A stretch of 64,000 bases of DNA from contig CP011265.1 of NCBI GenBank assembly GCA_000972765.1, positions 3,159,001-3,223,000 of the forward strand, written 5' to 3'. Below the pieces are notes generated by a model. It saw nothing but the letters and a program-made list of their open reading frames with translations, was not told where the DNA came from and did no database searches. A program made the position numbers and the translations under genes. This document shows positions 28,803 to 53,477 of this stretch, in pieces. The DNA comes from Verrucomicrobia bacterium IMCC26134. Its GTDB lineage: Bacteria; Verrucomicrobiota; Verrucomicrobiia; Opitutales; Opitutaceae. Numbering within the stretch: the stretch's first letter is position 1; the number at the start of each line of letters is the position of its first letter.

Positions 28803-28879
28803 GTCCCCATCGTCTAGCCCGGTCAGGACGCCTCCCTTTCACGGAGAGAACCGGGGTTCGAATCCCCGTGGGGACGCCA
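28803..28879 (+). tRNA. tRNA-Glu (anticodon UUC), CCA encoded
   Basis: Cloverleaf read directly: the 7-bp acceptor stem GTCCCCA (28803-28809) pairs with TGGGGAC (28869-28875). The anticodon loop CTTTCAC contains TTC. The T-arm is CCGGG GTTCGAA TCCCCG-like (28851-28868). The discriminator is G28876, followed by encoded CCA. The anticodon stem has one C-A mismatch at its top (27-43). An integrase gene begins 72 bp downstream on the same strand, so the 3' end of this gene is the likely insertion site. Confidence 0.96.
28850..28879 (+). other. Presumed left attachment site (attL) in the tRNA-Glu 3' end
   Basis: Tyrosine integrases commonly use the T-arm and 3' end of tRNA genes as the crossover core, and the integrase here starts 72 bp away in the usual orientation. 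The tRNA remains intact, as expected if the element restores the 3' part. No second copy of the T-arm sequence GGTTCGAATCCCCG was seen downstream in the window, so the other end is not defined. Confidence 0.5.
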
Positions 28880-28951: not shown

Positions 28952-30178
28952 ATGCCCGATACTGCATTCGACGTCAGCCGCTACGATAATCGTAACGGCG
29001 TCACCTCTTGGCGAGTCGCCGGCTGGCTTCACGGCCTCCGCATCCGAAAGAACTTCAAGTCCCGAGAAGAAGCAGCCGCCGAAGCAGCCACCTTGGAAAT
29101 CAAGGCGCTGCAAGCCACCTCCGGCCTTCGCTCTCTCGCCACCACGCTCACCGACGAGCAGGCCCGCGAGGCCGAGGCCGCGTTCCGCCGCCTCGCCGAC
29201 AAGCCGCGCCCGCTCTCGTTCTACCTCGACTTTGCCCTCGCCAACTATCGCGAGCCCGAGAGCCAAAAGTCGCTCTCCGACGCCATCACAGACTACAAGC
29301 GTTCAAAGTCCCACGAGCACGAGCAAGGCCAGCTCTCCGCCCCTCAGCTCGCCCGCATCGGCTGGGACTTGAAGCGCCTCGACGAGCACTTTCCCAAGCG
29401 CTCCGTGGCCGAGCTGACATTGCCCGCCATCGTCGCGTTCTTGGAGAAAGGCCGCCCCGGCATGAAGACCTACAACAACCGGCGCGGCATCGTCTCGACG
29501 TTCTTCAAATTCGCATTTCATCGCGGATGGATCGCCGAGAACCCCATGCCGAAGGTGCCTCACTACCGCATCCGCCGTAAGCGCGGGTCGGCCGTCACCT
29601 TCTCCACGGCCCAGGCCGCCGAGATGATGGAACACTTCGAGACCTACGAGGGCGGGCGTTGGATTCCTTACTTCGCCTTGTGCTTGTTCGCCGGCATCCG
29701 CCCCGGTGTGCCGGACGGCGAGATCACGAAGATCAAGCCCGAGGACGTGAACATTGACACCGGGGTTATCTCGATTTCCGCCGACGTCTCCAAAGTTCGC
29801 GAGCCGCGCCGCATCACTATTCAGCCCAACCTTGCCGCTTGGCTGCGTGCCTACCCACTCACGAAATTCCCCATCGTGGTCGGCAACTTCAAGAAGCGCC
29901 GCGAGAAGTTCCGCGACCGCTTCAACCTTTCCCACGACGTGCTCCGCCACACTTACATTTCGATGTTCGTCGCCAAGTTCCGCTCCATTGGCGAGGCCTC
30001 GATCCAAGCGGGCAACTCCGAGTCGATCATTCGTCGTCACTACCTCGATTTGAAGAGCACGGAAGAGGGCGCGGCATTCTTCGACATCATGCCGAAGCAC
30101 GCCCCGGCGGCATTGCTGCCCACGGGCACCCCCGCGCCTGCGCTCGAATCGCCGCCAGCGGCTCCACTCGCCGCGTAA
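28952..30178 (+). CDS. int: Tyrosine recombinase / phage integrase
   Basis: 408 aa. N-terminal arm-type DNA-binding segment (NGVTSWRVAGWLHGLRIRKN), SAM-like core-binding domain (about 150-215, LTLPAIVAFLEKGRPGMKTY), and C-terminal catalytic domain. Catalytic landmarks are Arg near 250 (CLFAGIRPGVPDGEITKI), His-x2-Arg near 328-331 (LSHDVLRHTY), and the nucleophile Tyr near 363 in RRHYLDL. The His-Arg and Tyr boxes are intact, so it is probably active. It directs site-specific insertion and, with a partner, excision at the adjacent tRNA-Glu. It is the first gene of the mobile element and ends in a good terminator, separating it from the rest. Confidence 0.93.
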   Translation: MPDTAFDVSRYDNRNGVTSWRVAGWLHGLRIRKNFKSREEAAAEAATLEIKALQATSGLRSLATTLTDEQAREAEAAFRRLADKPRPLSFYLDFALANYREPESQKSLSDAITDYKRSKSHEHEQGQLSAPQLARIGWDLKRLDEHFPKRSVAELTLPAIVAFLEKGRPGMKTYNNRRGIVSTFFKFAFHRGWIAENPMPKVPHYRIRRKRGSAVTFSTAQAAEMMEHFETYEGGRWIPYFALCLFAGIRPGVPDGEITKIKPEDVNIDTGVISISADVSKVREPRRITIQPNLAAWLRAYPLTKFPIVVGNFKKRREKFRDRFNLSHDVLRHTYISMFVAKFRSIGEASIQAGNSESIIRRHYLDLKSTEEGAAFFDIMPKHAPAALLPTGTPAPALESPPAAPLAA

Positions 30179-30273: not shown

Positions 30274-30522
30274 ATGAACACTCCACTTCCTTCCAGTTCC
30301 GTCGCCTCGTCTCCCGTTGTTGCGCCTACATTGACCGATGTTTTCGGCCTGCGGTCGTCAGGTATCTTTCCGGCCAATAACGAGCCGTCGATTCGCACCC
30401 TTCGCCAGTGGACAAAACTGCGTCGCATTCCCCATCACCGCGTCGGCCACTTCGTTTATTACGATCCTGCCGAGGTCTCCCACCACATCCGCACGAAACT
30501 CAAAATCCCCGCGCGCGGGTGA
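30274..30522 (+). CDS. Small HTH protein, excisionase / AlpA-like
   Basis: 82 aa from the ATG at 30274 inside a longer open frame. After a flexible Ser/Pro-rich start comes a winged-helix segment: VFGLRSSGIFPANNEPSI, then RTLRQWTKLRRIPHHRVG and HFVYYDPAEVSHHIRTKL. The pattern (helix, Arg-rich helix, 'hxVyydpaEV') is that of MerR-like excisionase/AlpA DNA-binding domains, which bend DNA at attachment sites or activate satellite genes. Its place just after the integrase supports a role in excision. It is flanked by terminators on both sides, and a 16-bp palindrome lies 22 bp after its stop. Confidence 0.7.
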   Translation: MNTPLPSSSVASSPVVAPTLTDVFGLRSSGIFPANNEPSIRTLRQWTKLRRIPHHRVGHFVYYDPAEVSHHIRTKLKIPARG

Positions 30523-30543: not shown

Positions 30544-30559
30544 CGGTCACACGTGACCG
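30544..30559. repeat. 16-bp palindrome, copy 1 (CGGTCACACGTGACCG)
   Basis: Inverted repeat CGGTCAC-AC-GTGACCG, 22 bp after the small HTH gene. The same 7-2-7 pattern with only the second spacer base changed occurs at 40534 and 48281, all within this element. Probable binding site of a dimeric regulator. Confidence 0.75.
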
Positions 30560-30636: not shown

Positions 30637-30666
30637 AACCGCGCCCGCTTCTGGGCGCGGTTTTTT
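30637..30666 (+). terminator. Rho-independent terminator before the cargo genes
   Basis: Stem CCGCGCCC / GGGCGCGG (30639-30646 with 30653-30660), 6-nt loop, flanked by AA and six T. It isolates the integrase/HTH block from the following genes, which start 12 bp later. Confidence 0.88.
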
Positions 30667-30677: not shown

Positions 30678-31988
30678 ATGCGCACCCGCCCTCCGATCAA
30701 CTACCGTAAGTTCAACGCTCCAAGGTTTCTAAATAAATTCCACCAAGGCGGGGAGCCCCTTGTCCGCGAGTTCTTCGCCGCCTACCTTCCGACCTCACCC
30801 TTCGCCACCGCCGACGAAATCCGAATAGGTGATGTGATCGCCTTTATCGAGCGCTACCTTCCGGCTACCAACCGACCGGCGCCCGCGACCGCTACCGATC
30901 CTGTCACACCTACCCCGGCCCCGGCCGATCCCACCGCCCCCGACGCCCCCGCCGTCGTCGCCGAGCCCTTCACTCGCGAGCAGGTCGAGCAAATCCACCG
31001 CCTGCTTTTCGACGCCTACGACCTCGGCGACCTTCAAGGTGCCTTCTTCCTGCGCAAGTCGCTGCAAACTTATCGAATCACCGGCGCACCCGCTCACGAT
31101 CTCGCCCCCGAGCATCTGAGCCTTATCGTGCTCACGCGTTGGCCAGAGGTCTTCATGGCGGCCTACGACCGCCTGGGAATGGCCAAGACCGACAACTTCG
31201 CTTTCTACACCGGCCCTCGCGCCGTAGCTCTGGCCGATCCGGTTCGCATCGCAGAAATTTTCCAGACCGAGCTTCGTCGCCTCAAGCGCACGCCCAAAGT
31301 TGTCGTCCGCTCTTTCGTCGAGGATCACATCGCCAATTTCATTTTCTACCACGAGAAGGCCGCGCGCGCCCCACTCGTCATCCGCGACGACCTGCAGATC
31401 GCCGGACTGCTCCACCGTCCCGCCCAACAGGATTTCATTTCCTACGACACCACCACAGGCCACCTAGAAATCGAAGTCGGCAATCGTCCGGAACAGGCCC
31501 CAATCCGCCAGGCCTTCGCCCGCGTCGCGCTCGGTGACGAAACATTCTACGAAACGCCGCAAAGCACCCGTCTCCTCGACCTCGATCTTCTTCTCACGCC
31601 CGACTTCACCTTTCCCGACGACACGATAAAACTTCGTTACCTTCAGATCGTCCTCGATCAGGTGGAACAACCCACCTTCGAGATTCGTTCCCAGGACGTC
31701 TTTCGCTCCCTCGACCTCAATCGCATCCGCGAAAACCTCCAGCTCCCGCTTCGCCCTGCACCCGCGCCGGCCGCAGAGCCGCCCGCCACGCCGGAGGAGC
31801 CGGTCGCTGTTCATCTCGATGACCGCTGCACGCGCGTCCGCGCTGCACATCTCGCGATCCGCGTCCCGCACAAGACACGCGCCATCCTCGTCGAGCTGAC
31901 CGCGCCCAACAAAGTCTCCTTCCCGCGCTCGATGCACTCCGCGCATGTCTTCGCCGTCCTGCGCCACATCGGCCTGCTCCGCGCGTGA
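30678..31988 (+). CDS. Hypothetical protein, first of a coupled cargo pair
   Basis: 436 aa, no family recognised. The N-terminus is basic (RTRPPINYRKFNAPRFLNKF). A Pro/Ala/Thr-rich linker lies at about 68-98 (PATNRPAPATATDPVTPTPA), and a second Pro/Ala linker lies near 365-380. The central part looks globular and mixed alpha/beta (HEKAARAPLVIRDDLQIAGL, QQDFISYDTTTGHLEIEVGN). The end, VFAVLRHIGLLRA, runs into the next gene: the stop TGA (31986-31988) overlaps a GTG start at 31985, so the two products are made together, probably as a complex. It lies between the integration and replication modules, a common place for accessory or anti-phage genes in satellites. Function unknown. Confidence 0.75.
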   Translation: MRTRPPINYRKFNAPRFLNKFHQGGEPLVREFFAAYLPTSPFATADEIRIGDVIAFIERYLPATNRPAPATATDPVTPTPAPADPTAPDAPAVVAEPFTREQVEQIHRLLFDAYDLGDLQGAFFLRKSLQTYRITGAPAHDLAPEHLSLIVLTRWPEVFMAAYDRLGMAKTDNFAFYTGPRAVALADPVRIAEIFQTELRRLKRTPKVVVRSFVEDHIANFIFYHEKAARAPLVIRDDLQIAGLLHRPAQQDFISYDTTTGHLEIEVGNRPEQAPIRQAFARVALGDETFYETPQSTRLLDLDLLLTPDFTFPDDTIKLRYLQIVLDQVEQPTFEIRSQDVFRSLDLNRIRENLQLPLRPAPAPAAEPPATPEEPVAVHLDDRCTRVRAAHLAIRVPHKTRAILVELTAPNKVSFPRSMHSAHVFAVLRHIGLLRA

Positions 31989-33190
31989 CCCTGCTCGACC
32001 TCATTTTCCAAAAACTCCACGCCCAGGCCGCGCCCCTGCTCTGGCACCGCGACTGCGTCGCTTATCCCGCCGAGTTTAAGGCGCTTCTCGCCTCCGGTCT
32101 CCTTCAGCCCGCGCCGGATGCCACCGATCTCCCCGCCGGACATCTTCCCGGCGTCCACGTCCCGCTTCAGGTGCGCTGGGTTCGATCCGCCCCGCTCGGC
32201 ATCGCCAACCACGACGAGGAGCCGGACGAGCACCCTTTGAGCCCCGAGGCCATCGCGCGCTTCCGAATCGACCTGCCCGTTCTCGCTCGCCGCTTGCGCT
32301 CGGCCCTTGGCACGACTGGCGGAGTGAGCGAGCGCTTCGACGACGGGCTTCTCCGCCTCGGCGACCATGCGACTTTGCCGGGGCGGCCCAGTTTCTATCT
32401 CGCTGCACCCGTCACCGATCCCGAGGCCTTTGTTGCCCGCTGCCGCCGTCTGCACCACCTCCACCCATCACGCGCCGTTATCGTCCTCACCTTCGGCAAT
32501 GTCTCGCTCGACGTCTCATTGCAGGAGGAGTTCGACCGCGACCTCCGTTTTCAGCATCACGTCCTAATCGACACCCACGGCCGCGCCACATGGACGCCGC
32601 CCGAGCTACAAACCGCACTCACGCCTGCCCCCGAGCCCGACGCCTCTCACGTCTTTCGTCCCGACGGCGCGGGCTGGCAAATCGTCTGGGCCGGTCGGCC
32701 CGTGGCCGTCTCTCCGACACTCATCGGCCTGCGCTACCTTCACTATCTCCTCACCCATCCCCGCGACCCCGTCGCGGTCGAGACGCTCATCGCCGAGGCC
32801 AATCCGCATCCCGACCAGGTAGGCGAGCGAGGCGCCGTCCATGCCATTGCCTCCGCTCCGGACGACAGCGCGCCCGATGCCGCCGCCTTTGCCGCCCTCC
32901 GCGCGAGACGCAGCCAGATTAAAACCGAGCTACCCCAAGCCAAAAGCCGCGCCCGCGAGCGCCTGCGCGAGGAGTTCGACCAGATCGAACGCTACTTAAA
33001 AAAGCACGGCGGCAACTCGCGCCCGGTTGGCAAGGCGGCCACCGCCAAGCGCGTTGCCGTTGCCAACGCGATCAACCGAGCCCTCGCGCAATGTCCGCCT
33101 CCGATGCGGAAGCACTTCGCGCCCCCTCGCCTTAACCTCGGTCATCAGGTCGCGTATTTCCCTGATGAATCGGTGGATTGGGAAACTTGA
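31985..33190 (+). CDS. Protein with C-terminal 'GLRYL' winged-helix/coiled-coil module
   Basis: 401 aa starting at GTG, overlapping the upstream gene by 4 bp. The first 220 residues are not recognised. From about 222 the sequence reads VFRPDGAGWQIVWAGRPVAV then SPTLIGLRYLHYLLTHPRDP. This resembles a winged-helix-like domain seen at the C-terminus of some large bacterial regulators and ATPases. It is followed by a basic coiled coil (RARRSQIKTELPQAKSRARE) and a terminal helical domain (AKRVAVANAINRALAQCPPP) ending HQVAYFPDESVDWET. That order matches those proteins. It suggests DNA binding or regulation, but the partner and target are unknown. The match is from memory of the motif, not a search. 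Confidence 0.6.
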   Translation: MTLLDLIFQKLHAQAAPLLWHRDCVAYPAEFKALLASGLLQPAPDATDLPAGHLPGVHVPLQVRWVRSAPLGIANHDEEPDEHPLSPEAIARFRIDLPVLARRLRSALGTTGGVSERFDDGLLRLGDHATLPGRPSFYLAAPVTDPEAFVARCRRLHHLHPSRAVIVLTFGNVSLDVSLQEEFDRDLRFQHHVLIDTHGRATWTPPELQTALTPAPEPDASHVFRPDGAGWQIVWAGRPVAVSPTLIGLRYLHYLLTHPRDPVAVETLIAEANPHPDQVGERGAVHAIASAPDDSAPDAAAFAALRARRSQIKTELPQAKSRARERLREEFDQIERYLKKHGGNSRPVGKAATAKRVAVANAINRALAQCPPPMRKHFAPPRLNLGHQVAYFPDESVDWET

Positions 33191-33194: not shown

Positions 33195-33236
33195 CGGTAA
33201 CGCCCCCGCGTTACCGAGGTAACGCCGGACGTTACC
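33195..33236. repeat. Twin inverted repeats (GGTAACG / CGTTACC) ahead of replication genes
   Basis: Two adjacent hairpins: CGGTAACGC / GCGTTACCG (33195-33203 with 33208-33216, 4-nt loop) and GGTAACG / CGTTACC (33218-33224 with 33230-33236, 5-nt loop). They lie 100 bp upstream of the replication operon. The GGTAACG unit occurs four times, alternating in orientation, which fits an operator for two dimers or an origin element. Confidence 0.75.
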
Positions 33237-33335: not shown

Positions 33336-34421
33336 ATGTCATCCGTTCCTAAATCCACCGCGCCGATCTCGATCACGCGCGGTCTCATCCAGAGCGCAAC
33401 GCGCCTCGCCCTCTACGGGCCCGAGGGCGTCGGCAAGACCACCATCACCGCCGGTTTTCCCGAACCGGTGTTCATCGACACCGAGGGCGGCACCGCCCAC
33501 CTCGACGTCGCCCGCTTCCCTCGTCCCCGTAACTGGGCCGAGTTGATCGCGGCCATCAACCACCTGCTCACTGCCGAGCACGGTCACAAGACCCTCGTCA
33601 TCGACTCCATCGACTGGGCGGAAAAACTCCTAATCGAGGAAGTCTGCCGCAAAGCCAACAAGGACGGCCTTGAGGATTTCGGCTACGGCAAGGGCCTCGT
33701 CTATCTCGCCGAGGAGTTCGCCCGCTTCCTCGCCCTGCTCGAAAAGCTCCGCGACCGCGGCGTCCATGTCGTCCTCGTCGGTCACAGCACCATCCGCAAG
33801 TTCGAGGCCCCCGACGCGGCCGGCGCTTACGACCGCTTCGAGCTGAAGCTCGCCAAGCAGGTCGCCGCCCTCGTCAAAGAGTGGGTCGATGCCCTTCTCT
33901 TCGTGAACTTCGTCACGAAGGTGACCGAGAAAGACGGCAAGCAACGCGCCGTCGGTGGCCGCGAGCGCGTGATCCACACAACGCACACCGCCGCTTGGGA
34001 TGCCAAAAATCGCTACAACCTCGACGAAAAACTCCCCTGCGTCGCCGCGTCCCTCGCCCCGATCTTCGCCCGCGTAGGCGCTCCACCCACGCCGCCGCCG
34101 ACCACTCCGGCCCCATCTGCCCCCGCTCCCGCGCCCGCCGCGAGTGCTCCGGCTCCCGCGCCGCGTCCCGGCCCCGTTCTCCTCATCACCCAGGAGCAGG
34201 CCGCCAAACTCGATCTTTACTGGACGACCCTCAAGAAGACGCCCGAAGACCGCGCCAAGGCCTTCGCGTGGGTCGGCTGCGACAGCATCGACCTCCACTG
34301 GAATGAACTCACCGCCGAGCAGGCCGCCAAGCTCATCTCCAAGCTCCAAGACCAGATGAACAAGATCGCCGAGGCTTCCACCTCGACGGCCGCCAAAGCC
34401 GGCAAAGGAGGTGCCCGATGA
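33336..34421 (+). CDS. Sak4-like phage ATPase (RecA-fold, AAA_24)
   Basis: 361 aa. Walker A GPEGVGKTT lies at 28-36 in ALYGPEGVGKTTITAGFPEP. The Walker B region is TLVIDSIDWAEKLLIEEVC, followed by VHVVLVGHSTIRKFEAPDA. This layout matches phage Sak4/AAA_24 proteins, single-strand annealing or recombination ATPases encoded next to DUF669-type SSB-like proteins, as here. A Pro/Ala linker (about 250-290) joins a C-terminal helical domain not seen in the shortest family members. A Shine-Dalgarno AAGGA (33326-33330) precedes the ATG. It is the first gene of the replication operon. Confidence 0.8.
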   Translation: MSSVPKSTAPISITRGLIQSATRLALYGPEGVGKTTITAGFPEPVFIDTEGGTAHLDVARFPRPRNWAELIAAINHLLTAEHGHKTLVIDSIDWAEKLLIEEVCRKANKDGLEDFGYGKGLVYLAEEFARFLALLEKLRDRGVHVVLVGHSTIRKFEAPDAAGAYDRFELKLAKQVAALVKEWVDALLFVNFVTKVTEKDGKQRAVGGRERVIHTTHTAAWDAKNRYNLDEKLPCVAASLAPIFARVGAPPTPPPTTPAPSAPAPAPAASAPAPAPRPGPVLLITQEQAAKLDLYWTTLKKTPEDRAKAFAWVGCDSIDLHWNELTAEQAAKLISKLQDQMNKIAEASTSTAAKAGKGGAR

Positions 34422-35080
34422 GCACCTACATCTTCGACATCGAAACCGGCCCGCGCTCCCGAGCCGAACTCGCCGAGTGCGTGCCCACCTTCGAGGCTCC
34501 GTCCAACTGGAAAGACCCCGAGAAAATCCGCGCCTACGTCGCCGAAAAGGAGGCCGAGTGGTTCCAGTCCGCCGCGCTCTCCGCGCTCACCGGTCGCGTG
34601 CTCGCCATCGGTTACGCCAACGAGGACACCGGTGAAATCGGCTTCTTCGCCACCGGCGACGAAGCCGCCGACCTCGCCGCCTTCTGGCGCTTGGTCGCAC
34701 CCACCGGCTACCTGAACGCCGAACTCATCGGTTTCAGCTCCAACCGCTTCGACCTGCCATTCCTCATTCGCCGTTCCTGGCACCTCCGCGTGCCTGTCCC
34801 GGCCGATCTCGTTTCCGGTCGTTGGCTCCCGTCGCAGTGTCGCGACGTGCTCGACTGCTGGCGCTGCGGCAACCGCGAGGACTCCGTCTCGCTCGACCGC
34901 CTCGCCCAGTTCCTCGGCGTCGGCCGCAAGAACGGCAGCGGCGCCGACTTCGCCTCGCTCTGGGCCACCGATCCGGCCGGTGCCCTCGACTACCTCGCCA
35001 ACGACCTCCGTCTCACCCGCCGCTGCGCCGTCGCGCTCGGCCTCATCGCTCATCCCTCCGTCTCCCAACCCTCCCTCTAA
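34418..35080 (+). CDS. DnaQ/PolB-type 3'-5' exonuclease
   Basis: 220 aa, RNase H-like exonuclease fold. Exo I is MSTYIFDIETGP (Asp7, Glu9); the Exo II region is IGFSSNRFDLPFLIRRSW (Asn-x2-Phe-Asp); Exo III includes DYLANDLRLTRRC with a later Asp. Likely a proofreading-type or recombination exonuclease working with the neighbouring Sak4 and helicase. A strong ribosome binding site AAAGGAGGT precedes the ATG, whose sequence overlaps the upstream stop (ATGA). The same GGAGGTGCCCGATGA block precedes the nuclease gene at 39289. Confidence 0.78.
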   Translation: MSTYIFDIETGPRSRAELAECVPTFEAPSNWKDPEKIRAYVAEKEAEWFQSAALSALTGRVLAIGYANEDTGEIGFFATGDEAADLAAFWRLVAPTGYLNAELIGFSSNRFDLPFLIRRSWHLRVPVPADLVSGRWLPSQCRDVLDCWRCGNREDSVSLDRLAQFLGVGRKNGSGADFASLWATDPAGALDYLANDLRLTRRCAVALGLIAHPSVSQPSL

Positions 35081-35085
35081 TCGCC

Positions 35086-35550
35086 ATGAAATACACTTCT
35101 TCCAACGAAGCCCCGAAATCCTACCACCTCCCCGCCGGTGACTACTCCGTCACCATCGTCGAGGCCTCCGAAACTGTCTCGCGCTCCACGGGCGCGGACA
35201 TGATCAAGCTCACGCTCGACGCCGAAGCTCCCGACGGCGCGACCGCCAAGGTCTTCGACTACCTCGTCGCCTCCGCGTCCTCCGCCTGGAAAATCGACGC
35301 CTTCCGCCGCGCCCTCGGTCACGAGGTCGTCCAAGGCGAACCGGTCGAACTAGCCGCCGAAGACCTCATCGGCCGCACGCTCCGCGCCCGCCTCAAGGTC
35401 GAGGAGTTCAACGGTCGCGCCAACAACAAGGTCGAGGCCTGGCTCGCCCCGCTCGCCGGTTCCGGCAACGCGCCCGCTCCCGCGCCGCGTGCCTCCGCTC
35501 CGACCGCACCCACCACCAAAAAGGAGGACTCCGCCATTGAGCCGTTTTAA
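35086..35550 (+). CDS. DUF669-type phage protein, SSB-like
   Basis: 154 aa. The start KYTSSNEAPKSYHLPAGDYS followed by VTIVEASETVSRSTGADMIK and LTLDAEAPDGATAKVFDYLV is typical of DUF669 phage proteins found beside Sak4-like ATPases and thought to bind single-stranded DNA. The core is an OB-like beta region to about 125, followed by a Pro/Ala tail and an acidic-hydrophobic end SAIEPF, like the C-terminal tip of SSB proteins. A Shine-Dalgarno for the next gene lies within its 3' end. Confidence 0.78.
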   Translation: MKYTSSNEAPKSYHLPAGDYSVTIVEASETVSRSTGADMIKLTLDAEAPDGATAKVFDYLVASASSAWKIDAFRRALGHEVVQGEPVELAAEDLIGRTLRARLKVEEFNGRANNKVEAWLAPLAGSGNAPAPAPRASAPTAPTTKKEDSAIEPF

Positions 35551-37075
35551 CCTCCGTCCCTATCAATCGGCGTGCGTCGAGTCCGTGCTCACGAAGTTCC
35601 GTGAGCGCGGCAAGCTCCTCGCCGTCCTCCCGACCGCCGCCGGAAAAACCGTGATTTTCTCGCACACGGCCGAGCGGTTCCAACCCGGTCGCACGCTCAT
35701 CCTCGCGCACCGCGAGGAGCTACTCACCCAGGCTGCCGACAAGCTGACCCGCGCCACCGGTATCGTCGCCGAGACCGAGTGCGGAGACGACTACGCCAGC
35801 CTCACCGCGCCCGTCGTCGTCGCCTCCGTCCAAACGCTGATGCGTGAAAAACGCCTGCACCGTTGGCCGCGCGATCACTTCAACCTCGTCGTCGTTGACG
35901 AAGCCCATCACGCGCTTGCAGAAAGCTACCAGCGCGTGCTCGGCTACTTCGACGGCCACGCCAAAATCCTCGGCGTCACCGCGACCCCCGACCGCGGCGA
36001 CAAGAAGAGTCTCGGCGCTTACTTCGAGGACATCGCGTTCGAGGTCAGTCTCCACGAACTCATCGAACAGGGTTATCTTGCCCGCATCGCCGTCCGAACG
36101 ATGCCGGTCGAGATCGACCTCGCGAGCGTCCGCACACTCGCCGGTGACTACAGCGACGCCGACCTCGGCGACGCCATCGAGCCTGCCCTCCGCGAGATCG
36201 TGTCGGCCATGCGTGCCGCCATCGGCACCCGCAAGACCATCGTCTTCCTCCCGCTCATCCGCACATCCCGCCGCTTCGTGGAACTCTGCGAAGAGGCGGG
36301 CCTGTCCGCCGCCCACATCGACGGCCAGAGCGAAGACCGCGCCGACATTCTCGCCCGCTTCGCCGTCGGTGAGTTTCAGATCCTCAGCAATTCTATGTTG
36401 CTCACCGAGGGCTTCGACGAGCCCTCCGTCGCGTGTGTCGTCTGTCTCCGCCCGACCAAGGTTCGCGCACTCTACGCGCAGATCATCGGACGCGGCACGC
36501 GGCTTCACCCCGGCAAGGAAAACCTCCTCGTCCTCGACTTCCTCTGGATGACCGGACGCCACTCCCTCGTCCGTCCCGCGCACCTTGTCGCGTCCACCCC
36601 CGAGATCGCCGACGCCATGATCGCCAAGGCCGCAGCGGCCGGCGACGAGGAGCACGACCTCCTTGCCGACGAGATCGACGCCAAGGCCCAGCGCGAGGCA
36701 GCCCTCGCCGCCGAGCTGGCCGCGCACGCCAAGCGCGCGTCCCGCCAGCTCGATCCGGTCGAGTTCGCCTTGTCCCTGCACGAACTCGACCTCGCCGAAT
36801 ACGAGCCGACGATGCCCTGGCACAGCCAGCCCGCTTCGCCCAAGCAGCTCGCCTTGATCGAGCGCAACGGACTCGACCCGACCGCCATCCGCGACAAGGG
36901 CCACGCCGCCGCGATCATCGACCGCATCCTCGCGCGTCGAAACCTCGGCCTCGCCACGCCCAAGCAAGTCGCGTGTCTCCGCCGCAACGGACACCCGCGC
37001 CCCGACCTCGTCACCTTCGACGAAGCCGGTGCCTGGATGAATGACCGCTTCGGCCAACAACGGAGGGACGCCTGA
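35537..37075 (+). CDS. DEAD/DEAH-box superfamily II helicase
   Basis: 512 aa. The best start is TTG at 35537, with a perfect AAGGAGG at 35521-35527, nine bases ahead, and the protein then begins LSRFNLRPYQSACVESVLTK. Motif I is LPTAAGKTVIF, motif II VVVDEAHHAL, motif III GVTATPDRGD, and motif VI ALYAQIIGRGTRLHPGKENL. The C-terminus carries two copies of a short TPKQ/SPKQ helical motif (SPKQLALIERNGLD, TPKQVACLRRNGHP), probably a DNA-binding module. It should unwind DNA in element replication or recombination. The TGA stop overlaps the next ATG (37073-37077). Confidence 0.88.
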   Translation: MSRFNLRPYQSACVESVLTKFRERGKLLAVLPTAAGKTVIFSHTAERFQPGRTLILAHREELLTQAADKLTRATGIVAETECGDDYASLTAPVVVASVQTLMREKRLHRWPRDHFNLVVVDEAHHALAESYQRVLGYFDGHAKILGVTATPDRGDKKSLGAYFEDIAFEVSLHELIEQGYLARIAVRTMPVEIDLASVRTLAGDYSDADLGDAIEPALREIVSAMRAAIGTRKTIVFLPLIRTSRRFVELCEEAGLSAAHIDGQSEDRADILARFAVGEFQILSNSMLLTEGFDEPSVACVVCLRPTKVRALYAQIIGRGTRLHPGKENLLVLDFLWMTGRHSLVRPAHLVASTPEIADAMIAKAAAAGDEEHDLLADEIDAKAQREAALAAELAAHAKRASRQLDPVEFALSLHELDLAEYEPTMPWHSQPASPKQLALIERNGLDPTAIRDKGHAAAIIDRILARRNLGLATPKQVACLRRNGHPRPDLVTFDEAGAWMNDRFGQQRRDA

Positions 37076-39081
37076 TGCCCCTGCGCTACACGTCGCCCTC
37101 CGATTGCGCCGGGCCGCTCGACCTCATCGAGCGCGCCCGGCGTTACCTCGCCAAGATGCCGCCCGCCATTTCGGGGCAGCACGGCCACGACCAGACCTTC
37201 GCCGTAGCCTGCACGCTTGTGCAGGGCTTCGGCCTGTCGGTTGCCGAAGCCGCCCCTCTCTTCGCCGAGTATAACGCCCGTTGCTCGCCCCCGTGGTCGG
37301 AGCACGACCTCGCCCACAAACTTACCGACGCCGACCGCGCGTCACCACCCACCGAAGGACGCGGCCATCTCTCCCGCTCCACCGGCCCCGCGTCTCCACG
37401 CCCTCACGCATCCTCCGTGTCCACCATCGCCACACCTTCCACACCCATCCCCGACGCCACCCAGTTCGAGACCTTCCTCCGCGCCTCCTTCGAGCCTGCC
37501 GACGTGCTCTCCATCGCCCCCGGCACGCTCCACCCCGAATCCGAGCGCGCCATCCCCGAACACGGCGGCGTCAACACCCTCAGCCGCGACGCCTGGCTTG
37601 AGCGTGCCGCCTCACGCGGCGGCATCGCCCGCGTCTTCACCTCCCGCCACGGTCTGTTCATCCGCATCAACCCGGTGCGCTCCGGTGCCGACGGCACCGA
37701 CGAAGACGTGACCGCGTTGCGCCATGTCCTCGTCGAGAGCGACGCCATCCCGAAGGCCGAGCAGGAGCGCCAGCTCCGCGCCTCCGGCCTGCCCATCGCC
37801 GCCCTCATCGACTCTGCCGGTGCATCCGTCCACGCATGGGTTCGCATCGACGCCAAGACCCGCGAGGAATACCACGCCCGCCGAGAGAAAGTCTGGGCCT
37901 CGCTCCCCGGCTTCCAGATCGACAAAGCCAATAAGAATCCCTCGCGCTTCTCTCGTTGCCCCGGCGGCCTGCGCGGCGAGGGCGTGCAACGCCTTCTCGC
38001 CGTCAACCTCGGCTCTCCCTCGTTCGCCGATTGGGAAGCCACGCACGAGGACGCCCGCGACATCGTCGCCGCGTCCACGTTCTGCGCCGAGGACGAGCCG
38101 GATCCACCGCAGCTCATTGAGGGCATCCTGTTTCGCGGCGCGAAGATGATTATCGCCGGGCCGTCGAAGAGCCGGAAAACCTGGAATCTCACCGACCTCG
38201 CCATCTCCGTCTCCCTCGGTCGCCCGTGGTGCGGCTTCACCACGCGCGCCTCTGCCGTCCTCTACGTCAACTTGGAGATTGCCCGGTTCAGTTACCGCAA
38301 GCGCATCCGCTTCGTCTGCGCAGGCCGGGGCTTCACGCCCTCCGACCTCGCCCGCTTCCACGTCTGGAATCGTCGCGGCAAGGACAACGAGATCAGTCAG
38401 CTCTCCGCCCGCCTTCGCCGCCAGGCCGCGCGCGTCGGGGCCGACCTCATCATCATCGACCCGATCTACAAGACCTACGGGGACAGGGAGGAGAACTCGA
38501 ACACCGAGATGGCGCAGGTCTTGAACGAGCTGGAGAAGCTCGCGCAGGACACCAGCGCCGCCGTCCTCATCGCCGCCCACTTCCCGAAAGGGAATCTCAC
38601 CGGCCGCGATGCCATCGACCGCGTGGCGGGGGCGTCTGTCTTCGGTCGCGATCCCGACGCCCTCCTCATCATGACGCCGCACGAGCAGCCCGACGCGTTC
38701 ACCGTGTCGCCCATCCTCCGCGACCTCCCACCGCAACCCGAGTTCGTCATTCAGTGGACGGCCCAGCACTTCGAGCGCATCGCCGCTGATCCGAAGTCTA
38801 TCCAGGGCCGCGACAAGCCCGCGCACGAGAAGGCCGGGGGTTCCTACCTCATCGGCAGTCACCGCGCCCTGTTCTCCAACATGCCGCCCGTGACCTACGA
38901 CCGCGCCGACCCTCATGGCTGCGAAGTCGTCACCCACATCGCCCAGAAGCTCGCCGAGGCCGGCAAGGATTCATCTAAGGCCCTCGCCGCTTTCCATTAC
39001 ATGCGGAAGAGCGACCGGGGGATCATCGTCTTCGATTCTAACCTCAAAAAGTGGAGGGGCTGTGACCATGTCGTCGCCTGA
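37075..39081 (+). CDS. PrimPol-like primase fused to AAA/RepA-type helicase
   Basis: 668 aa. Residues 1-105 resemble the small N-terminal domain of phage primases (LIERARRYLAKMPPAISG, WSEHDLAHKLTDADR). Residues about 150-330 look like a PrimPol (archaeo-eukaryotic primase) core: LRHVLVESDAIPKAEQERQL, DSAGASVHAWVRIDA and NKNPSRFSRCPGG, giving the Asp, Ser-x-His and Arg expected. The last half is a RecA/RepA-like ATPase: Walker A MIIAGPSKSRKTWNL, Walker B DLIIIDPIYKTYGD, then LIAAHFPKGN. A primase-helicase of this type is the usual replication initiator of P4-like satellites and plasmids. An iteron array follows directly. Confidence 0.72.
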   Translation: MPLRYTSPSDCAGPLDLIERARRYLAKMPPAISGQHGHDQTFAVACTLVQGFGLSVAEAAPLFAEYNARCSPPWSEHDLAHKLTDADRASPPTEGRGHLSRSTGPASPRPHASSVSTIATPSTPIPDATQFETFLRASFEPADVLSIAPGTLHPESERAIPEHGGVNTLSRDAWLERAASRGGIARVFTSRHGLFIRINPVRSGADGTDEDVTALRHVLVESDAIPKAEQERQLRASGLPIAALIDSAGASVHAWVRIDAKTREEYHARREKVWASLPGFQIDKANKNPSRFSRCPGGLRGEGVQRLLAVNLGSPSFADWEATHEDARDIVAASTFCAEDEPDPPQLIEGILFRGAKMIIAGPSKSRKTWNLTDLAISVSLGRPWCGFTTRASAVLYVNLEIARFSYRKRIRFVCAGRGFTPSDLARFHVWNRRGKDNEISQLSARLRRQAARVGADLIIIDPIYKTYGDREENSNTEMAQVLNELEKLAQDTSAAVLIAAHFPKGNLTGRDAIDRVAGASVFGRDPDALLIMTPHEQPDAFTVSPILRDLPPQPEFVIQWTAQHFERIAADPKSIQGRDKPAHEKAGGSYLIGSHRALFSNMPPVTYDRADPHGCEVVTHIAQKLAEAGKDSSKALAAFHYMRKSDRGIIVFDSNLKKWRGCDHVVA

Positions 39082-39093
39082 TTTTTCATTCCC

Positions 39094-39189
39094 GTATCCC
39101 GCCCTGTGTCCCGCTCGGTATCCCGCCTGTGTCCCGCCCCCTAGCACCCGGGACACACACCCGGGATCTAGACCGGGACATATCCCGGG
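39094..39189. repeat. Iteron-like array, candidate replication origin
   Basis: Octamers alternate GTATCCCG (39094), GTGTCCCG (39106), GTATCCCG (39118), GTGTCCCG (39129) at 12, 12 and 11 bp. The array then inverts to CGGGACAC (39149), CGGGATCT (39162) and CGGGACAT (39174) at 13 and 12 bp, ending in CATATCCCGGG. About one helical turn separates each copy, so a protein would line up on one face. It lies just after the primase-helicase gene, a usual place for a satellite or plasmid origin. Confidence 0.75.
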
Positions 39190-39194
39190 CTCTA

Positions 39195-39246
39195 TTCTTC
39201 TAAAGAAGAAGTGGGAGAGCATCGCTATCGCTCTCCCACCTTCTTT
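39195..39246 (+). promoter_or_regulatory. Two mutually exclusive hairpins upstream of the nuclease gene
   Basis: Hairpin A: TTCTTC / GAAGAA (39195-39200 with 39205-39210), 4-nt loop. Hairpin B: GTGGGAGAGC / GCTCTCCCAC (39211-39220 with 39230-39239), extended past one bulged C by 39205-39210 with 39241-39246, 9-nt loop. The segment 39205-39210 can join only one of them. This resembles an attenuator or a weak terminator 30 bp before a ribosome binding site. Confidence 0.55.
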
Positions 39247-39288
39247 CGACGGGACAGACAAACCGCGCCGCGTCGCAGGAGGTGCCCG

Positions 39289-39675
39289 ATGAACTCCCGC
39301 GAAAAAGGAAAGCGCGGCGAGCGCCGTTGGCGTGACGTGCTCCGCGATGCCGGATTCCAGAAGGCTCATCGCGGCGTCCAGTATTCCGGCGGCGCGGACT
39401 CGCCCGACGTCGCCTGTCCCGAGTTGCCGGGGATTCACTTCGAGGTGAAGGCCGTCGAGGCGCTGAACATCTGGCGCGCGATGGCCCAGTCCATCACCGA
39501 CGCCGGGGATAAGAAGATCCCTGTCGTCGCCCACACCCGCAACCGCTCCGGCTGGCTCGTCACCATGCGCGCCGAGGACTGGCTCGCCCTCATCCGCGAG
39601 TCCGACCACGTCGCGCCGCCCGACACTTCGCCCATCGCCCCGAGCCCATCGCCCACACCGGAGGTGTCGCCATGA
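39289..39675 (+). CDS. PD-(D/E)XK nuclease, Holliday-junction-resolvase-like
   Basis: 128 aa from the ATG at 39289, which has AGGAGGT six bases ahead; a longer frame to 39211 runs through the hairpins and is not used. The sequence KGKRGERRWRDVLRDAGFQK followed by ADSPDVACPELPGIHFEVKA gives the conserved Glu, Asp and Glu-x-Lys of PD-(D/E)XK nucleases, in the spacing of Hjc-type resolvases and small phage endonucleases. It would resolve branched DNA for replication or packaging. Its stop overlaps the next start (ATGA, 39672-39675). Confidence 0.75.
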   Translation: MNSREKGKRGERRWRDVLRDAGFQKAHRGVQYSGGADSPDVACPELPGIHFEVKAVEALNIWRAMAQSITDAGDKKIPVVAHTRNRSGWLVTMRAEDWLALIRESDHVAPPDTSPIAPSPSPTPEVSP

Positions 39676-40238
39676 CCTACGCCGACCGCCAGGCCGAGCG
39701 CGATTCGGCTTACTCCACCGCCTACCGCGATTGGGTCGCCTCCCTACCTCCCGCCGAGCGCGCCGAGCTCGCGGCGGGGGGCTTGTCCGAGCCCGACGCC
39801 ACCCGCCACACCTGCACCCGCCAGCACGACGACGCCACCCTCGACCGCACCGCCGCGCCCGAGCCCACGCCCGACGACGTTGCCGAGTTGGCCGACGAGC
39901 CCGCCCCCGTCTCGCCCGCCACACCCACCGACACCACGACCGCCGCCGATGTGCTCGCCTCGTTCTGTGCCCGCATCCGTTCCCACCCGAACCCGCTCCT
40001 CGCTTTCGACGCCGCCTGTTTTGCCTCCGGCCTCATGGACGTCGAAGGTCTCAGCGAGACCGCCCTCGCCAAGCGTCACCGCGTCACCCGCGCCGCCTTC
40101 TCCAAACTCGTCGTTGCGTGGTCGGAGACCTTCGGCCTCCCGCCCTCGCGGGGGATGCGTTCGAAACGCGCCCGCCACGCCTACCGCCAAGCCCGATTGA
40201 CATCCCTCGCCCAACACCATGACCAAGCCCAAACCTAA
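39672..40238 (+). CDS. Hypothetical element protein with C-terminal HTH
   Basis: 188 aa, family not recognised. The N-terminal third is charged and helical (DRQAERDSAYSTAYRDWVAS). A Pro/Thr/Asp-rich linker follows (about 63-93). The C-terminal part has a likely helix-turn-helix (LSETALAKRHRVTRAAFSKL), comparable with sigma-region-4-like or phage regulator domains. It is coupled to the nuclease gene upstream (ATGA) and overlaps the next gene by 20 bp. It may control late genes or act in replication, but nothing shows this directly. Confidence 0.65.
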   Translation: MTYADRQAERDSAYSTAYRDWVASLPPAERAELAAGGLSEPDATRHTCTRQHDDATLDRTAAPEPTPDDVAELADEPAPVSPATPTDTTTAADVLASFCARIRSHPNPLLAFDAACFASGLMDVEGLSETALAKRHRVTRAAFSKLVVAWSETFGLPPSRGMRSKRARHAYRQARLTSLAQHHDQAQT

Positions 40239-40806
40239 GCTCGTCGCCCCTCTCGAAGTCCTCCCGCCCGACACCACCGCTCCCGACACCCAGGGGGCTA
40301 TGTTGAGCATCGACCTCTCCGCCTCGATCAACGCCGCCTTTGCCACCGCCCGCACCGCCGCCGACTCCGCAACCAACGAGGCCCGCTCCGCCATCACCGC
40401 CGCCGTTCAGTGCGGCGACCTCCTCACCCGCCAGAAGGCCAGCGTCCCCCACGGCACTTGGCTCGATTGGCTCGCCACCCATTGCCCCGACATCTCCGCC
40501 GAGACCGCCCGCCGCTACATGCGTCTCTCGAAACGGTCACAAGTGACCGATCTCACCGACGCCGCCTCCCTCCGCCAAGCCTACCTCGCCACGGGGGTTC
40601 TTCCCGAAGAACCCCCTCGCGACAACGACACCCCCGACGCCAACGCCCCCGTCGTCACCTTCACGCGGGGGCTTGATCAATTCCGCCGCTGGTTCCACCG
40701 CCGCACAGAAGACAAGCCCCTCGCCAAGTGGACGCCCGAAGCCCGCCGCCTCCTCCGCAACGAACTCGCCTGGTTCAAGAAGCTCCACGACGACCTCGCC
40801 GCCTGA
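40219..40806 (+). CDS. DUF3102-like HTH protein
   Basis: 195 aa. The central segment GDLLTRQKASVPHGTWLDWL followed by ISAETARRYMRLSKRS matches the DUF3102/ParB-like pattern ('HG.f..Wl...... S..tArryMrla'), a helix-turn-helix found in phages and mobile elements. N-terminal and C-terminal parts are helical, the end reading LRNELAWFKKLHDDLAA. A copy of the element's 16-bp palindrome lies inside its coding sequence (40534). It is the last gene before a 1.5-kb non-coding stretch. A regulatory or partition-like role is possible. Confidence 0.65.
   Translation: MTKPKPKLVAPLEVLPPDTTAPDTQGAMLSIDLSASINAAFATARTAADSATNEARSAITAAVQCGDLLTRQKASVPHGTWLDWLATHCPDISAETARRYMRLSKRSQVTDLTDAASLRQAYLATGVLPEEPPRDNDTPDANAPVVTFTRGLDQFRRWFHRRTEDKPLAKWTPEARRLLRNELAWFKKLHDDLAA
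40534..40549. repeat. 16-bp palindrome, copy 2 (CGGTCACAAGTGACCG)
   Basis: Inverted repeat CGGTCAC-AA-GTGACCG inside the DUF3102-like gene. Identical to the copies at 30544 and 48281 except for one spacer base. Confidence 0.75.
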
Positions 40807-42321: not shown

Positions 42322-42849
42322 ATGCCCATCGCCGTCCCGAAAGCCGACAAGGTCGGGCGCAGCTCCAAGTTCAGCCGCGCCCTGTTCGACCGCGTCCTCA
42401 CGGCGATACGTGACGGCGCGCCGTCCCTGAACGCCATCGAGACGCAGGGCATCGACCAATCCACGTTTTACCGGCACTTGCAGCGTCAGCCCGACCTCGT
42501 GCCGTTGCTCCAAGCCGCCCAGCTCGAACGCGACCGCGTGCGGAACGCGTCGCGAATCGAGGAGGCCGAGCAGGAGTTGAAGCGCCGAGGCATCGACGGC
42601 TGGACGGAGCCCGTTTTCGACGCGAAAGGCCAGATGTGCGGCGAGCGCCGCCGCTACTCCGACGCGTGCCTGATTTTCTTCCTCAAGGCCCACAAGCCCG
42701 AGCTTTACCGCGACCAGCCCACCACCGTCGTCGCCACCCAAGTCAACATCACGCCCGAGAAGGAAAAAGACATCATGCGCGAGTGGCGTTCGCGTCTCGG
42801 CGCGACGGAAGCCCCGGCACCGGCCACGACCACGCCGCCCGCGCCATGA
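42322..42849 (+). CDS. Terminase small subunit-like HTH protein
   Basis: 175 aa. It begins with a helix-turn-helix segment: KFSRALFDRVLTAIRDGAPS, then LNAIETQGIDQSTFYRHLQR. A helical stretch (RDRVRNASRIEEAEQELKRR) and YSDACLIFFLKAHKPELYRD follow; the last pattern is typical of small terminase subunits and related phage HTH proteins. It should recognise the packaging site and hand DNA to the large subunit. Its stop overlaps the next start (ATGA, 42846-42849), which is the large terminase gene. Confidence 0.78.
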   Translation: MPIAVPKADKVGRSSKFSRALFDRVLTAIRDGAPSLNAIETQGIDQSTFYRHLQRQPDLVPLLQAAQLERDRVRNASRIEEAEQELKRRGIDGWTEPVFDAKGQMCGERRRYSDACLIFFLKAHKPELYRDQPTTVVATQVNITPEKEKDIMREWRSRLGATEAPAPATTTPPAP

Positions 42850-44243
42850 GTGCCGCCCGCAAGAAATCCGGCACTCCCGAGCGCCGCCTCGCGGTCACTC
42901 CACTCGACCTGCTCTTGCCCTACCAACGGGCGTGGGTGCAAGACGCCGCGCGCTTCAAAATCTGGCTCAAGTCCCGCCAGATCGGCGGCTCGCTCGCCGC
43001 CTCCTTCGAGGTTGTTGCCGACGCCATCGAGACGGGCGGTGACTGGGTGATCTTGAGCGCGGGAGAGCGGCAGGCCTTGGAGTTCATGGACAAGGTGAAC
43101 CGCGCCGCGTCGATCTTTTGCGACGCCGTGAGCTACTCGTCGGGCCGCGAATACCGCCCCGAGATCCAGAAATCCCAACTTCGATTTCCCAACGGTGCGC
43201 GCGTGCTCGCACTTCCCGCCAATCCGTCCACCGCGCGCGGCTACTCCGCCAACCTCGTCCTCGATGAATTCGCGTTCCACGAGAACCCCGAGGAAATCTG
43301 GCGCGCGGTTTATCCGATCATCTCCAACCCGCTGCGCGGTGCGCTCAAACTCCGCGTCATCTCCACCCCCGCCGGTCGCAACAACAAGTATTTCGACCTC
43401 TGGGAACACGCCCCTGCGTTCTCGCGCCACAAAACCAGCGTTTACGACGCAGTCACCCAAGGTCTCGCGCTCAACATCGACGAACTACGCGCCAACCTCG
43501 CCGACCCCGACGGCTGGGCGCAGGAGTTCGAGTGTCAGTTCATGGAGCACTCGTCCCAGGTGTTCGGGGCCGAACTGGTCAAGGGCTGTGAAAGCGAAGA
43601 CGCCACGCTCGATCCGCCGGGCGAGCTATTCTCAACCATGCTCCGTCCGCGTCCGGCCTTGTTCGTCGGCATCGACGTTGGCCGCAAACGCGACCTCACC
43701 GTCGCCTGGACGCTTGAGCGTGTCCACGGCGGCAACCTCGTCACCCGCGAGGTGCTTGTCCTCGACCGCGTGCCATTCCCGCAGCAAGAGGCCATTCTCG
43801 CGCCGCGCGTCATGGCCGCAGCCTTCACCGCCATCGACGCGACCGGCATAGGCGGCCCGGTAAGCGAACACCTCGCCGCCGCCCTCGACGAAACCCGCTT
43901 CGAGGGCGTCACCTTCACCGGTGACCGCAAGCGCGAGCTGTTCGAGCGTTTGAAGAAGGCCATGCAGGCCCGAGGCGTCGCGCTGCCCGCCGCCGCCGTC
44001 ATCCGTGACGACCTCGGCAGTATGCAGCGCATCGTCAGTCCCGGCGGCACCATCCGCTACGCCGCCGCCCGCACCGCCGACGGTCATGCAGACCGCTCCA
44101 CCGCGCTCGCTCTCGCGATCCACGCCGCCCAGCGCAACCCGTCCGCCGGGTGCGGAGCGTTCGCCGCCGAGCGCGTTCCGACCGGCCTCAATGCCCGCCA
44201 TCGCCCCGCGCTCACCCGCTACCGCGGCGCGTGGGCGCGATGA
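42846..44243 (+). CDS. Phage terminase large subunit (Mu gp28-like)
   Basis: 465 aa. The ATPase half has a variant Walker A KSRQIGGS (42-49) with Lys at the front, as in lambda gpA, and a Walker B NLVLDEFAFHENPEEIWRAV. The nuclease half has the RNase H-like start FVGIDVGRKRDLTVAWTLER with the metal-binding Asp, then FTAIDATGIGG and the late Asp near the end. This powers DNA packaging into heads and cuts the genome. The portal gene follows after 15 bp. The Mu-like relationship is also supported by the neighbouring DUF935 portal and gpI protease. Confidence 0.88.
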   Translation: MSAARKKSGTPERRLAVTPLDLLLPYQRAWVQDAARFKIWLKSRQIGGSLAASFEVVADAIETGGDWVILSAGERQALEFMDKVNRAASIFCDAVSYSSGREYRPEIQKSQLRFPNGARVLALPANPSTARGYSANLVLDEFAFHENPEEIWRAVYPIISNPLRGALKLRVISTPAGRNNKYFDLWEHAPAFSRHKTSVYDAVTQGLALNIDELRANLADPDGWAQEFECQFMEHSSQVFGAELVKGCESEDATLDPPGELFSTMLRPRPALFVGIDVGRKRDLTVAWTLERVHGGNLVTREVLVLDRVPFPQQEAILAPRVMAAAFTAIDATGIGGPVSEHLAAALDETRFEGVTFTGDRKRELFERLKKAMQARGVALPAAAVIRDDLGSMQRIVSPGGTIRYAAARTADGHADRSTALALAIHAAQRNPSAGCGAFAAERVPTGLNARHRPALTRYRGAWAR

Positions 44244-44258
44244 CACGGAACCCCGAGC

Positions 44259-45884: not shown

Positions 45885-45899
45885 CACGGCGGCAGCGGC

Positions 45900-46889: not shown

Positions 46890-46910
46890 CCGCCCTCCCG
46901 CATCCTTCCC

Positions 46911-47306: not shown

Positions 47307-47340
47307 GCCGCCCGCCCTTTAGCCCTCAGCTCACACGCCC

Positions 47341-53474: not shown

Positions 53475-53477
53475 CCA

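What the first reader, a model, noticed from the sequence alone, without database searches (positions are those of the whole stretch)
30678..33190. Coupled two-gene cargo of unknown function in the accessory slot of the element
Two proteins (436 and 401 aa) overlap by GTGA, are isolated by a terminator in front and sit where satellites keep anti-phage genes. The second ends in a winged-helix/coiled-coil module of a type otherwise known in large regulators and ATPases. Neither matches a defence system I know, so this is a candidate new two-component defence or interference pair.
Basis: inference. Interest (0 to 1): 0.55.

Follow-up and report, generated by a model that had tools for sequence, protein, structure and literature searches.

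The report
Swappable DNA-clamp gene pair in prophage
Two overlapping genes in a virus-like element of a Verrucomicrobia-type bacterium encode a protein predicted to have the DNA-clamp fold of RdgC, lambda RexA and the kinetochore protein CENP-N, plus a partner with exchangeable DNA-binding-like ends; the pair sits in a slot where related elements carry other cargo, so it is a good but untested candidate for phage exclusion.

Summary
In detail: ORF1 (436 aa) and ORF2 (401 aa) overlap by GTGA behind a conserved terminator-like hairpin. ORF1 matches no Pfam, NCBIfam, PHROGs or PADLOC family up to E 1; ORF2 only sub-threshold. The pair is swappable cargo: the same chromosome holds a sister element about 92% identical in backbone DNA but with an ORF1 only 17% identical, and two related elements carry a QatC-type pair there. 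The window element also contains an Ssp defence locus. ORF1's model matches inner-kinetochore CENP-N/Chl4 and bacterial RdgC (Z 10.5/10.4; 15 of 15 Foldseek PDB hits at E<=0.001), the fold of lambda RexA. ORF2 has no membrane segment, an N-part weakly resembling an inactive PD-(D/E)XK fold, and a C-terminal DNA-binding-like domain that recombines between relatives and is shared with the QatC-like proteins. Three tblastn queries found no homologue in 50,697 phage records; homologues often lie near recombinases, and in at least 5 of 15 surveyed loci near restriction or BREX genes. Best reading: a Rex-like exclusion cassette with a non-RexB partner (0.45). Rivals: recombination modulation, lysogeny control. 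No function was tested. New variant of a known kind.

The parts
28803..28879 (+). tRNA-Glu (TTC), integration target; 25 bases at its 3' end (28857-28881) recur at window-equivalent about 65987-66011, beyond the window (attR)
   Evidence: ARAGORN; repeat
28952..30178 (+). tyrosine integrase
   Evidence: PHROG integrase 1.8e-23
30331..30522 (+). small excisionase-like protein; start not certain, function by my reading
   Evidence: gene; similar frame (52% over 58 aa) next to int in the sister element
30544..30559 (.). element-specific palindrome CGGTCACNNGTGACCG (further copies at 40534-40549 and 48281-48296)
   Evidence: 6 sites in the 4.0 Mb genome, 3 in this element and 3 in its sister; backward control 0
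30637..30666 (+). terminator-like hairpin and T-run in the leader of ORF1
30678..31988 (+). ORF1, predicted RdgC/RexA/CENP-N-fold protein
   Evidence: AF2 pLDDT 84; Foldseek; VIA
31985..33190 (+). ORF2, partner without membrane segment: N-part (about 1-214) weakly like a PD-(D/E)XK fold without the catalytic motif; C-part DNA-binding-like plus coiled coil
33195..33236 (.). tandem inverted repeats (GGTAAC...GTTACC) just after ORF2, possible binding site
   Evidence: 0 of 500 shuffles as good
33336..40806 (+). replication/recombination backbone (Sak4-like, exonuclease-like, DUF669-like, helicase, primase, resolvase-like nuclease, g188, g195)
   Evidence: DUF669 name by my reading
42322..48243 (+). 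terminase small and large subunit, portal, protease, scaffold-like protein and major head protein
   Evidence: all six match head/packaging PHROGs
49281..63998 (+). second cargo: SspB, C, D, F, G, H (49281-63192) and a cysteine-desulfurase-like gene that runs past the window
   Evidence: PADLOC; cysteine desulfurase by my reading

Best explanation
A two-gene exclusion cassette carried as swappable cargo by a family of tRNA-integrated elements, some with head genes. Likely working (inferred): ORF1 forms an RdgC/RexA-like clamp on DNA; ORF2 places or gates it through its exchangeable DNA-binding end, perhaps on the repeats behind its own gene; when a competing phage or sister element replicates or recombines, the loaded clamp blocks its DNA metabolism or triggers an effect like lambda Rex. 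Shown: the coupled pair, its conservation as a pair, the slot swapping, the domain swapping and the predicted fold of ORF1. Inferred: DNA binding, complex formation, trigger and outcome.
For: Slot swapping: backbone 89-97% identical in DNA by block (about 92% overall) between two elements of one chromosome, yet different int and pair (ORF1 17% identical); genome G011 carries the backbone at 94% over 6.8 kb with another pair. Two related elements hold a 262-aa + QatC-like pair in the same place (PADLOC QatC 1e-52 for L095). The window element contains an Ssp locus. ORF1 fold: 15 of 15 Foldseek PDB hits at E<=0.001 are inner-kinetochore chains (12) or RdgC (3); VIA Z 10.5 (188 aligned, rmsd 5.5) and 10.4 (218 aligned, rmsd 5.3), first other fold 7.0. 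Lambda RexA has the RdgC fold, and rex-like genes of several temperate phages exclude phages (PMC11077077, abstract and passages). ORF2 C-part is exchanged between relatives (L102: 83% N / 43% C with L103, 29% N / 64% C with L047) and shared with the QatC-like proteins (2.7e-19 and 6e-13). Restriction or BREX genes within five genes in at least 5 of 15 loci. A gene of ORF2 size follows ORF1 in all 23 loci with readable flank (in L042 one gene lies between), and N-part profiles of the ORF2 groups match one another (near-far 91.9%, near-pair II 85.8%, bridge-far 99.1%, far-pair II 96.8% probability).
Against: No assay. ORF2 is not RexB-like: no hydrophobic segment reaches a membrane-span value. 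No sequence-level relation to lambda RexA, Sbash gp30 or E. coli RdgC (hhalign probability under 1%; single-sequence targets). The pair stands directly before recombination genes in five elements. The other ten homologue loci were not scanned one by one for defence genes; the neighbour comparison (164 against 24 PADLOC models) counts redundant models, not proteins, and its control is weak. One ORF2 profile comparison is poor (near-bridge 19.5%, pair II-L048 39.0%). VIA Z near 10 with rmsd about 5 and Foldseek TM of 0.25-0.36 by query is a fold match, not proof of homology.
Confidence: 0.45

Rival explanations
1. Recombination or replication accessory: ORF1 works like RdgC, coating DNA and restraining RecA-type strand exchange for the Sak4/exonuclease module downstream, with ORF2 loading it near the replication genes.
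For: RdgC fold; phage RdgC or recombination-associated proteins are 5 of the 14 viral fold hits at E<=0.001; position directly before Sak4 in window, L047, L102, L103, L139.
Against: The pair also precedes a different primase/helicase module (L011, L012) and lies near type I/III restriction genes elsewhere. Pair II is followed by a terminator-like hairpin before Sak4. L095, with the primase/helicase backbone of L011, has QatC cargo and no ORF1/ORF2 in this place. No tblastn match in phage records.
Confidence: 0.25
2. Lysogeny or superinfection-immunity control module: the pair tunes the element's own switch, and divergent versions let two sister elements live in one cell.
For: Two sister elements with divergent pairs in one genome; conserved element-specific palindromes and a leader hairpin before ORF1; lambda RexA biases the lysogeny switch (PMC11077077 abstract); DNA-binding-like C-part of ORF2.
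Against: The palindrome is the same in both elements although the pairs differ, so the pair is unlikely to read it. Homologues near restriction genes.
Confidence: 0.2
3. DNA maintenance module: the ORF2 end binds the tandem repeats behind its gene and ORF1 clamps there, holding or partitioning the excised element.
For: Tandem inverted repeats after ORF2 in window and L139 (0 of 500 shuffles), and after the QatC-like gene of L013 (2 of 500); weaker in L011 (13) and L012 (42); CENP-N-like fold.
Against: L095 has no such repeat (259 of 500 shuffles as good); the elements are integrated, where partition is not needed; I recognised no partner ATPase beside the pair.
Confidence: 0.06

Closest known systems
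RexAB exclusion systems (lambda RexA/RexB; actinophage Sbash, CarolAnn, Toast; P. putida RexAB-type)
   Same: Two coupled genes in a prophage-like element; first protein of the RdgC fold (predicted here; crystal structure for lambda RexA, PMC11077077)
   Different: Second protein without membrane segment and with a DNA-binding-like end, instead of the four-helix membrane protein described for P. putida (PMC12894663, passages); no sequence relation detected; ORF1 has a helical part in front of the RdgC-like core
RdgC
   Same: Core fold aligned over model residues 169-436 (Z 10.4)
   Different: Not matched by a Pfam model; followed by ORF2; accessory and swappable
Kinetochore CENP-N/Chl4 and CENP-L/Iml3
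   Same: Fold, and for CENP-N also part of the helical region in front (model range 111-432, Z 10.2)
   Different: Bacterial element gene; no detectable sequence similarity; no nucleosome context
QatC-type cargo pair (L095, L013)
   Same: Same slot; same C-terminal module as ORF2
   Different: QueC-like enzyme domain and a different first gene; no ORF1
Capsid-forming PICI-type satellites (recalled)
   Same: Integrase, replication and head genes without a recognised tail module
   Different: Helper dependence untested; no comparison with described examples was made

Membership tests
RexAB exclusion system | First subunit with the RdgC/RexA fold | tested here: met
   Predicted model: RdgC Z 10.4, 218 aligned, rmsd 5.3. 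RexA itself is not in the rows shown.
RexAB exclusion system | Sequence relation to RexA | tested here: inconclusive
   hhalign probability below 1% against lambda RexA and Sbash gp30; single-sequence targets
RexAB exclusion system | Membrane-spanning RexB partner | tested here: not met
   Highest 19-residue hydropathy mean 1.66 among 21 ORF2-type proteins, 1.09 in ORF2 itself
RexAB exclusion system | Excludes phages / binds DNA as a dimer | not testable with these tools
   needs bench work
RdgC family (PF04381) | Match to the family model | tested here: not met
   no Pfam family for ORF1 up to E 1; hhalign with E. coli RdgC 0.2%
CENP-N/CENP-L | Shared fold | tested here: met
   Foldseek E 2.5e-5; VIA Z 10.5 and 10.2; predicted model only, rmsd 4.4-5.5
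CENP-N/CENP-L | Sequence family match | tested here: not met
   no Pfam hit; no PDB chain below E 0.2 in the profile search
PD-(D/E)XK nucleases (ORF2 N-part) | Fold | tested here: inconclusive
   Z 4.2-5.6 to FokI, XisH, AF2093, EcoT38I and others, a level that may be chance
PD-(D/E)XK nucleases (ORF2 N-part) | Conserved catalytic D...(D/E)xK | tested here: not met
   not seen by eye in the alignment of 21 ORF2-type proteins
Known anti-phage systems of PADLOC-DB 2.0.0 | Match to a model | tested here: not met
   0 families for ORF1 and ORF2 up to E 1
Capsid-forming phage satellite | Head and packaging genes without tail genes | tested here: met
   six of six proteins 42322-48243 match head/packaging PHROGs; no tail family for the ten proteins scanned at E 0.01; weak tail-family hit of g195, E 0.0033, discounted; the Ssp genes were not scanned with PHROGs
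Capsid-forming phage satellite | Helper dependence | not testable with these tools
   needs induction with a helper phage

The most novel reading that the evidence does not exclude
ORF1 founds a prokaryotic lineage of the RdgC/RexA/CENP-N fold that keeps CENP-N's helical front part, works as a DNA clamp tethered by a site-specific partner, and is traded between mobile elements as an immune or exclusion cassette; such a lineage would be a candidate prokaryotic relative of the CENP-N/CENP-L kinetochore subunits.
Probability: 0.15. Interest if true: 0.88.

Novelty: new variant of a known kind. Interest (0 to 1): 0.62.

Why it matters
If right, the Rex type of prophage exclusion extends to Verrucomicrobiota and, by metagenome-assembled records, to a Thermogutta and a Deltaproteobacteria bin, with a new partner whose DNA-binding end is exchanged, which would make its specificity testable. 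A bacterial protein whose model spans both RdgC and CENP-N would also give the question of where the kinetochore CENP-N/L fold came from a concrete test object. The two sister elements in one genome, alike in backbone and different in their left cassettes, are a natural experiment.

Tried and rejected
Direct family matches: none for ORF1 up to E 1; ORF2 only DUF6887 E 0.057 and phrog_7885 E 0.2, not used. Sequence-profile search of PDB: nothing below E 0.11. Weak hits dropped before counts: G096/L006 (59-residue ORF1 match, E 1e-3) and G050/L010/L014 (ORF2 match antisense to a glycosidase-like gene). Plasmid searches with two homologues: no match. ORF2 as a membrane partner: rejected. The element-specific palindrome as the target of ORF2: rejected as unlikely, because elements with different pairs keep it; with up to three mismatches it is not above chance in the window (6 against 5.1 expected), only the exact matches stand out. 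Rfam scan of 28500-48800: only the tRNA above its gathering score. RdgC family in relatives: 0 of 19 genomes; E. coli control positive. Foldseek for ORF2: nothing at E<=0.001. G043 (L154) and G011:C19 (L155) carry the C-terminal module, but the gene calls there did not resolve the host protein. The right end of the sister element: an MTase/helicase locus stands behind its head genes, but no attR was found in the stretch fetched, so it is not shown to lie inside that element.

Papers: searches of the PMC open-licence library gave no report of this pair that I recognised in the listings; most subscription papers are not held. Of PMC11077077 I saw abstract, outline and passages; of PMC12894663 and PMC4080450 passages; of PMC12839542 a term search with no occurrence; all others only as listings.

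The neighbour survey is a weak test: I cut the 109 listed neighbours of 15 loci to 100 (nine entries of L037, L043 and L140, mostly look-alikes of entries kept); the control is a random 110 out of the 192 proteins from 54 integrase-family loci, those of 1300 aa or more left out, not random genome; the tool lists models, not proteins. The ten proteins I had picked as suspects. The ORF2 assignment of L045 and L046 is by eye; for the other distant loci it rests on alignment and on the profile comparison.

Full report
What is there. ORF1 (30678-31988) and ORF2 (31985-33190) are overlapping, co-directional genes with clearly coding codon usage and purifying selection in four pairs of relatives each (dN/dS 0.055-0.192 for ORF1, 0.157-0.263 for ORF2; several dS near saturation). 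They follow a tRNA-Glu-anchored integrase and a small excisionase-like gene and precede Sak4-like, exonuclease-like, helicase, primase and resolvase-like genes, then terminase, portal, protease and head genes. No tail family was hit by the ten late and right-end proteins scanned; a weak tail-family hit of g195 (E 0.0033) is discounted. The last 25 bases at the tRNA end recur about 37 kb on (window-equivalent about 65987-66011), so the element also contains an Ssp-type defence locus, SspB, C, D, F, G, H, with a cysteine-desulfurase-like gene behind it (by reading).

The pair is swappable cargo. The same chromosome carries a sister element next to a tRNA-Ser gene: 33343-48778 of the window aligns to it in five blocks of 89-97% DNA identity (93% in the largest, 9.0 kb; about 92% overall), whereas the integrases share 57% of residues and the ORF1 proteins 17% (locus L102). 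In genome G011 the backbone is 94% identical over 6.8 kb with yet another ORF1/ORF2 pair. I surveyed the stretch behind the integrase in 65 loci (60 fetched, plus five already held), out of about 90 integrase matches by my count: ORF1-family genes occur in 7 (one of them, L105, cut short), and two loci (L013, L095) have a 262-aa protein and a QatC-like protein in that place (PADLOC QatC E 1e-52 for L095). L095 shares the primase/helicase backbone of L011, and both L095 and L013 share the g188/g195 genes. The other 56 have other contents or too little sequence. Behind its head genes the sister element is followed by an MTase/helicase locus; no attR was found in the stretch fetched, so whether that locus lies inside the element is open.

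Conservation of the pair. Among relatives of the window genome, 4 of 189 genomes have an ORF1 match including the window's own, one of which I dropped as weak; with a three-row profile, 12 of 387 genomes of the phylum, the window's own included. The one scan of the genome collection gave 6 loci, among them a Thermogutta and a Deltaproteobacteria record. A gene of ORF2 size follows ORF1 in all 23 loci where the flank is readable (window, L011, L012, L033-L037, L039-L048, L102, L103, L139, L141, L142); in L042 a trypsin-like gene lies between. The near-family ORF2 profile hits only L033, L034, L041 and L042 among the distant loci, but N-part profiles of the groups match one another: near-far 91.9%, near-pair II 85.8%, bridge (L041/L042)-far 99.1%, bridge-pair II 97.1%, far-pair II 96.8%, far-L048 77.4%, with two poor values, near-bridge 19.5% and pair II-L048 39.0%. 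L045 and L046 are assigned by eye. L038 and L140 are cut by contig ends and L105 is disrupted.

What ORF1 is. AlphaFold2 with 24 rows gives pLDDT 84, pTM 0.76. All 15 PDB hits at E<=0.001 are inner-kinetochore chains (12) or E. coli RdgC (3) (reading chain letters as CENP-N/Chl4 or CENP-L is mine). VIA-align gives Z 10.5 (a Chl4 chain, 188 aligned, rmsd 5.5), 10.4 (RdgC, 218, 5.3), 10.2 (human CENP-N, 172, 4.4), 8.0-8.9 for CENP-L/Iml3-type chains, then 7.0 for the first other fold, by my reading TBP. Human CENP-N aligns from model residue 111, RdgC from 169. Foldseek TM-scores are low (0.25-0.36 by query), as can happen for multi-domain proteins with different domain angles. Among predicted viral structures 14 match at E<=0.001, five of them named RdgC or recombination-associated protein. 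No sequence-level relation was found. The kinship of the RdgC, RexA and Iml3/Chl4 folds is published (PMC11077077, passages; PMC4080450, passage).

What ORF2 is. Residues 1-212 are modelled well, the rest poorly except the coiled coil. The core 95-214 hits many PD-(D/E)XK proteins at Z 4.2-5.6, a level that may be chance, and the catalytic motif was not seen in 21 ORF2-type proteins. It has no membrane-like segment. The C-part exists in several types (by reading); between L102, L103 and L047 it has been exchanged: L102 shares 83% of the N-part with L103 but 43% of the C-part, and 29% and 64% with L047. The window's C-part type is also the end of the QatC-like proteins in the same slot and occurs in 8 of 141 relatives at E<=1e-6, two of these partial.

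Regulation. The leader hairpin before ORF1 is kept in 7 of 8 aligned ORF1-bearing leaders even where the proteins are far diverged. A palindrome CGGTCACNNGTGACCG occurs at six sites in the 4.0 Mb genome, three in each sister element, and its backward control never. Tandem inverted repeats follow ORF2 in the window (0 of 500 mononucleotide shuffles as good; L095 259 of 500).

Interpretation. Slot swapping, an Ssp locus in the same element, restriction/BREX neighbours in at least 5 of 15 loci (L033, L041, L042, L048, L142) and the RexA-type fold favour an exclusion cassette. Direct adjacency to recombination genes in five elements and the RdgC fold keep a recombination role possible; the leader, the palindromes and the RexA precedent keep lysogeny control possible. 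None of the functional steps was tested.

Noticed in passing
window 49281-64358 (end lies in L017): SspB, C, D, F, G, H phosphorothioation-type defence locus plus a cysteine-desulfurase-like gene inside the same element, between head genes and attR.
   Followed up: partly
L148 and L102 (same genome, 2776000-2806200): Sister element next to tRNA-Ser with about 92% identical backbone, another left cassette, and behind its head genes a defence-type locus (HmaB/DUF1156-type MTase, PLD/DrmD-type helicase) whose place inside or outside the element is open.
   Followed up: partly
window 30544, 40534, 48281: Element-specific palindrome CGGTCACNNGTGACCG at three places, one inside the g195 gene; exact copies elsewhere in the genome only in the sister element. 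The binding protein is unknown.
   Followed up: partly
window 40807-41944 against L011 8397-9509: Stretch with no convincing gene that is 88% identical between elements, more than the g195 gene beside it (74%); no Rfam match. Possibly packaging or origin DNA or an RNA.
   Followed up: no
L013 6812-9722 and L095 6731-9695: 262-aa protein plus QatC-like protein with an ORF2-type end: a possible short Qat-like two-gene cargo.
   Followed up: partly
L105 5498-8408: ORF1 cut short, followed by genes that look like a HipBA toxin-antitoxin pair (by reading only).
   Followed up: no
L102 8858-10165, L105 8884-10191: A 435-aa gene on the opposite strand between integrase and excisionase, unknown function.
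   Followed up: no
L042 9477-10211: Trypsin-like peptidase gene (PADLOC LmuA, 2e-8) between ORF1 and ORF2.
   Followed up: no
   Followed up: no
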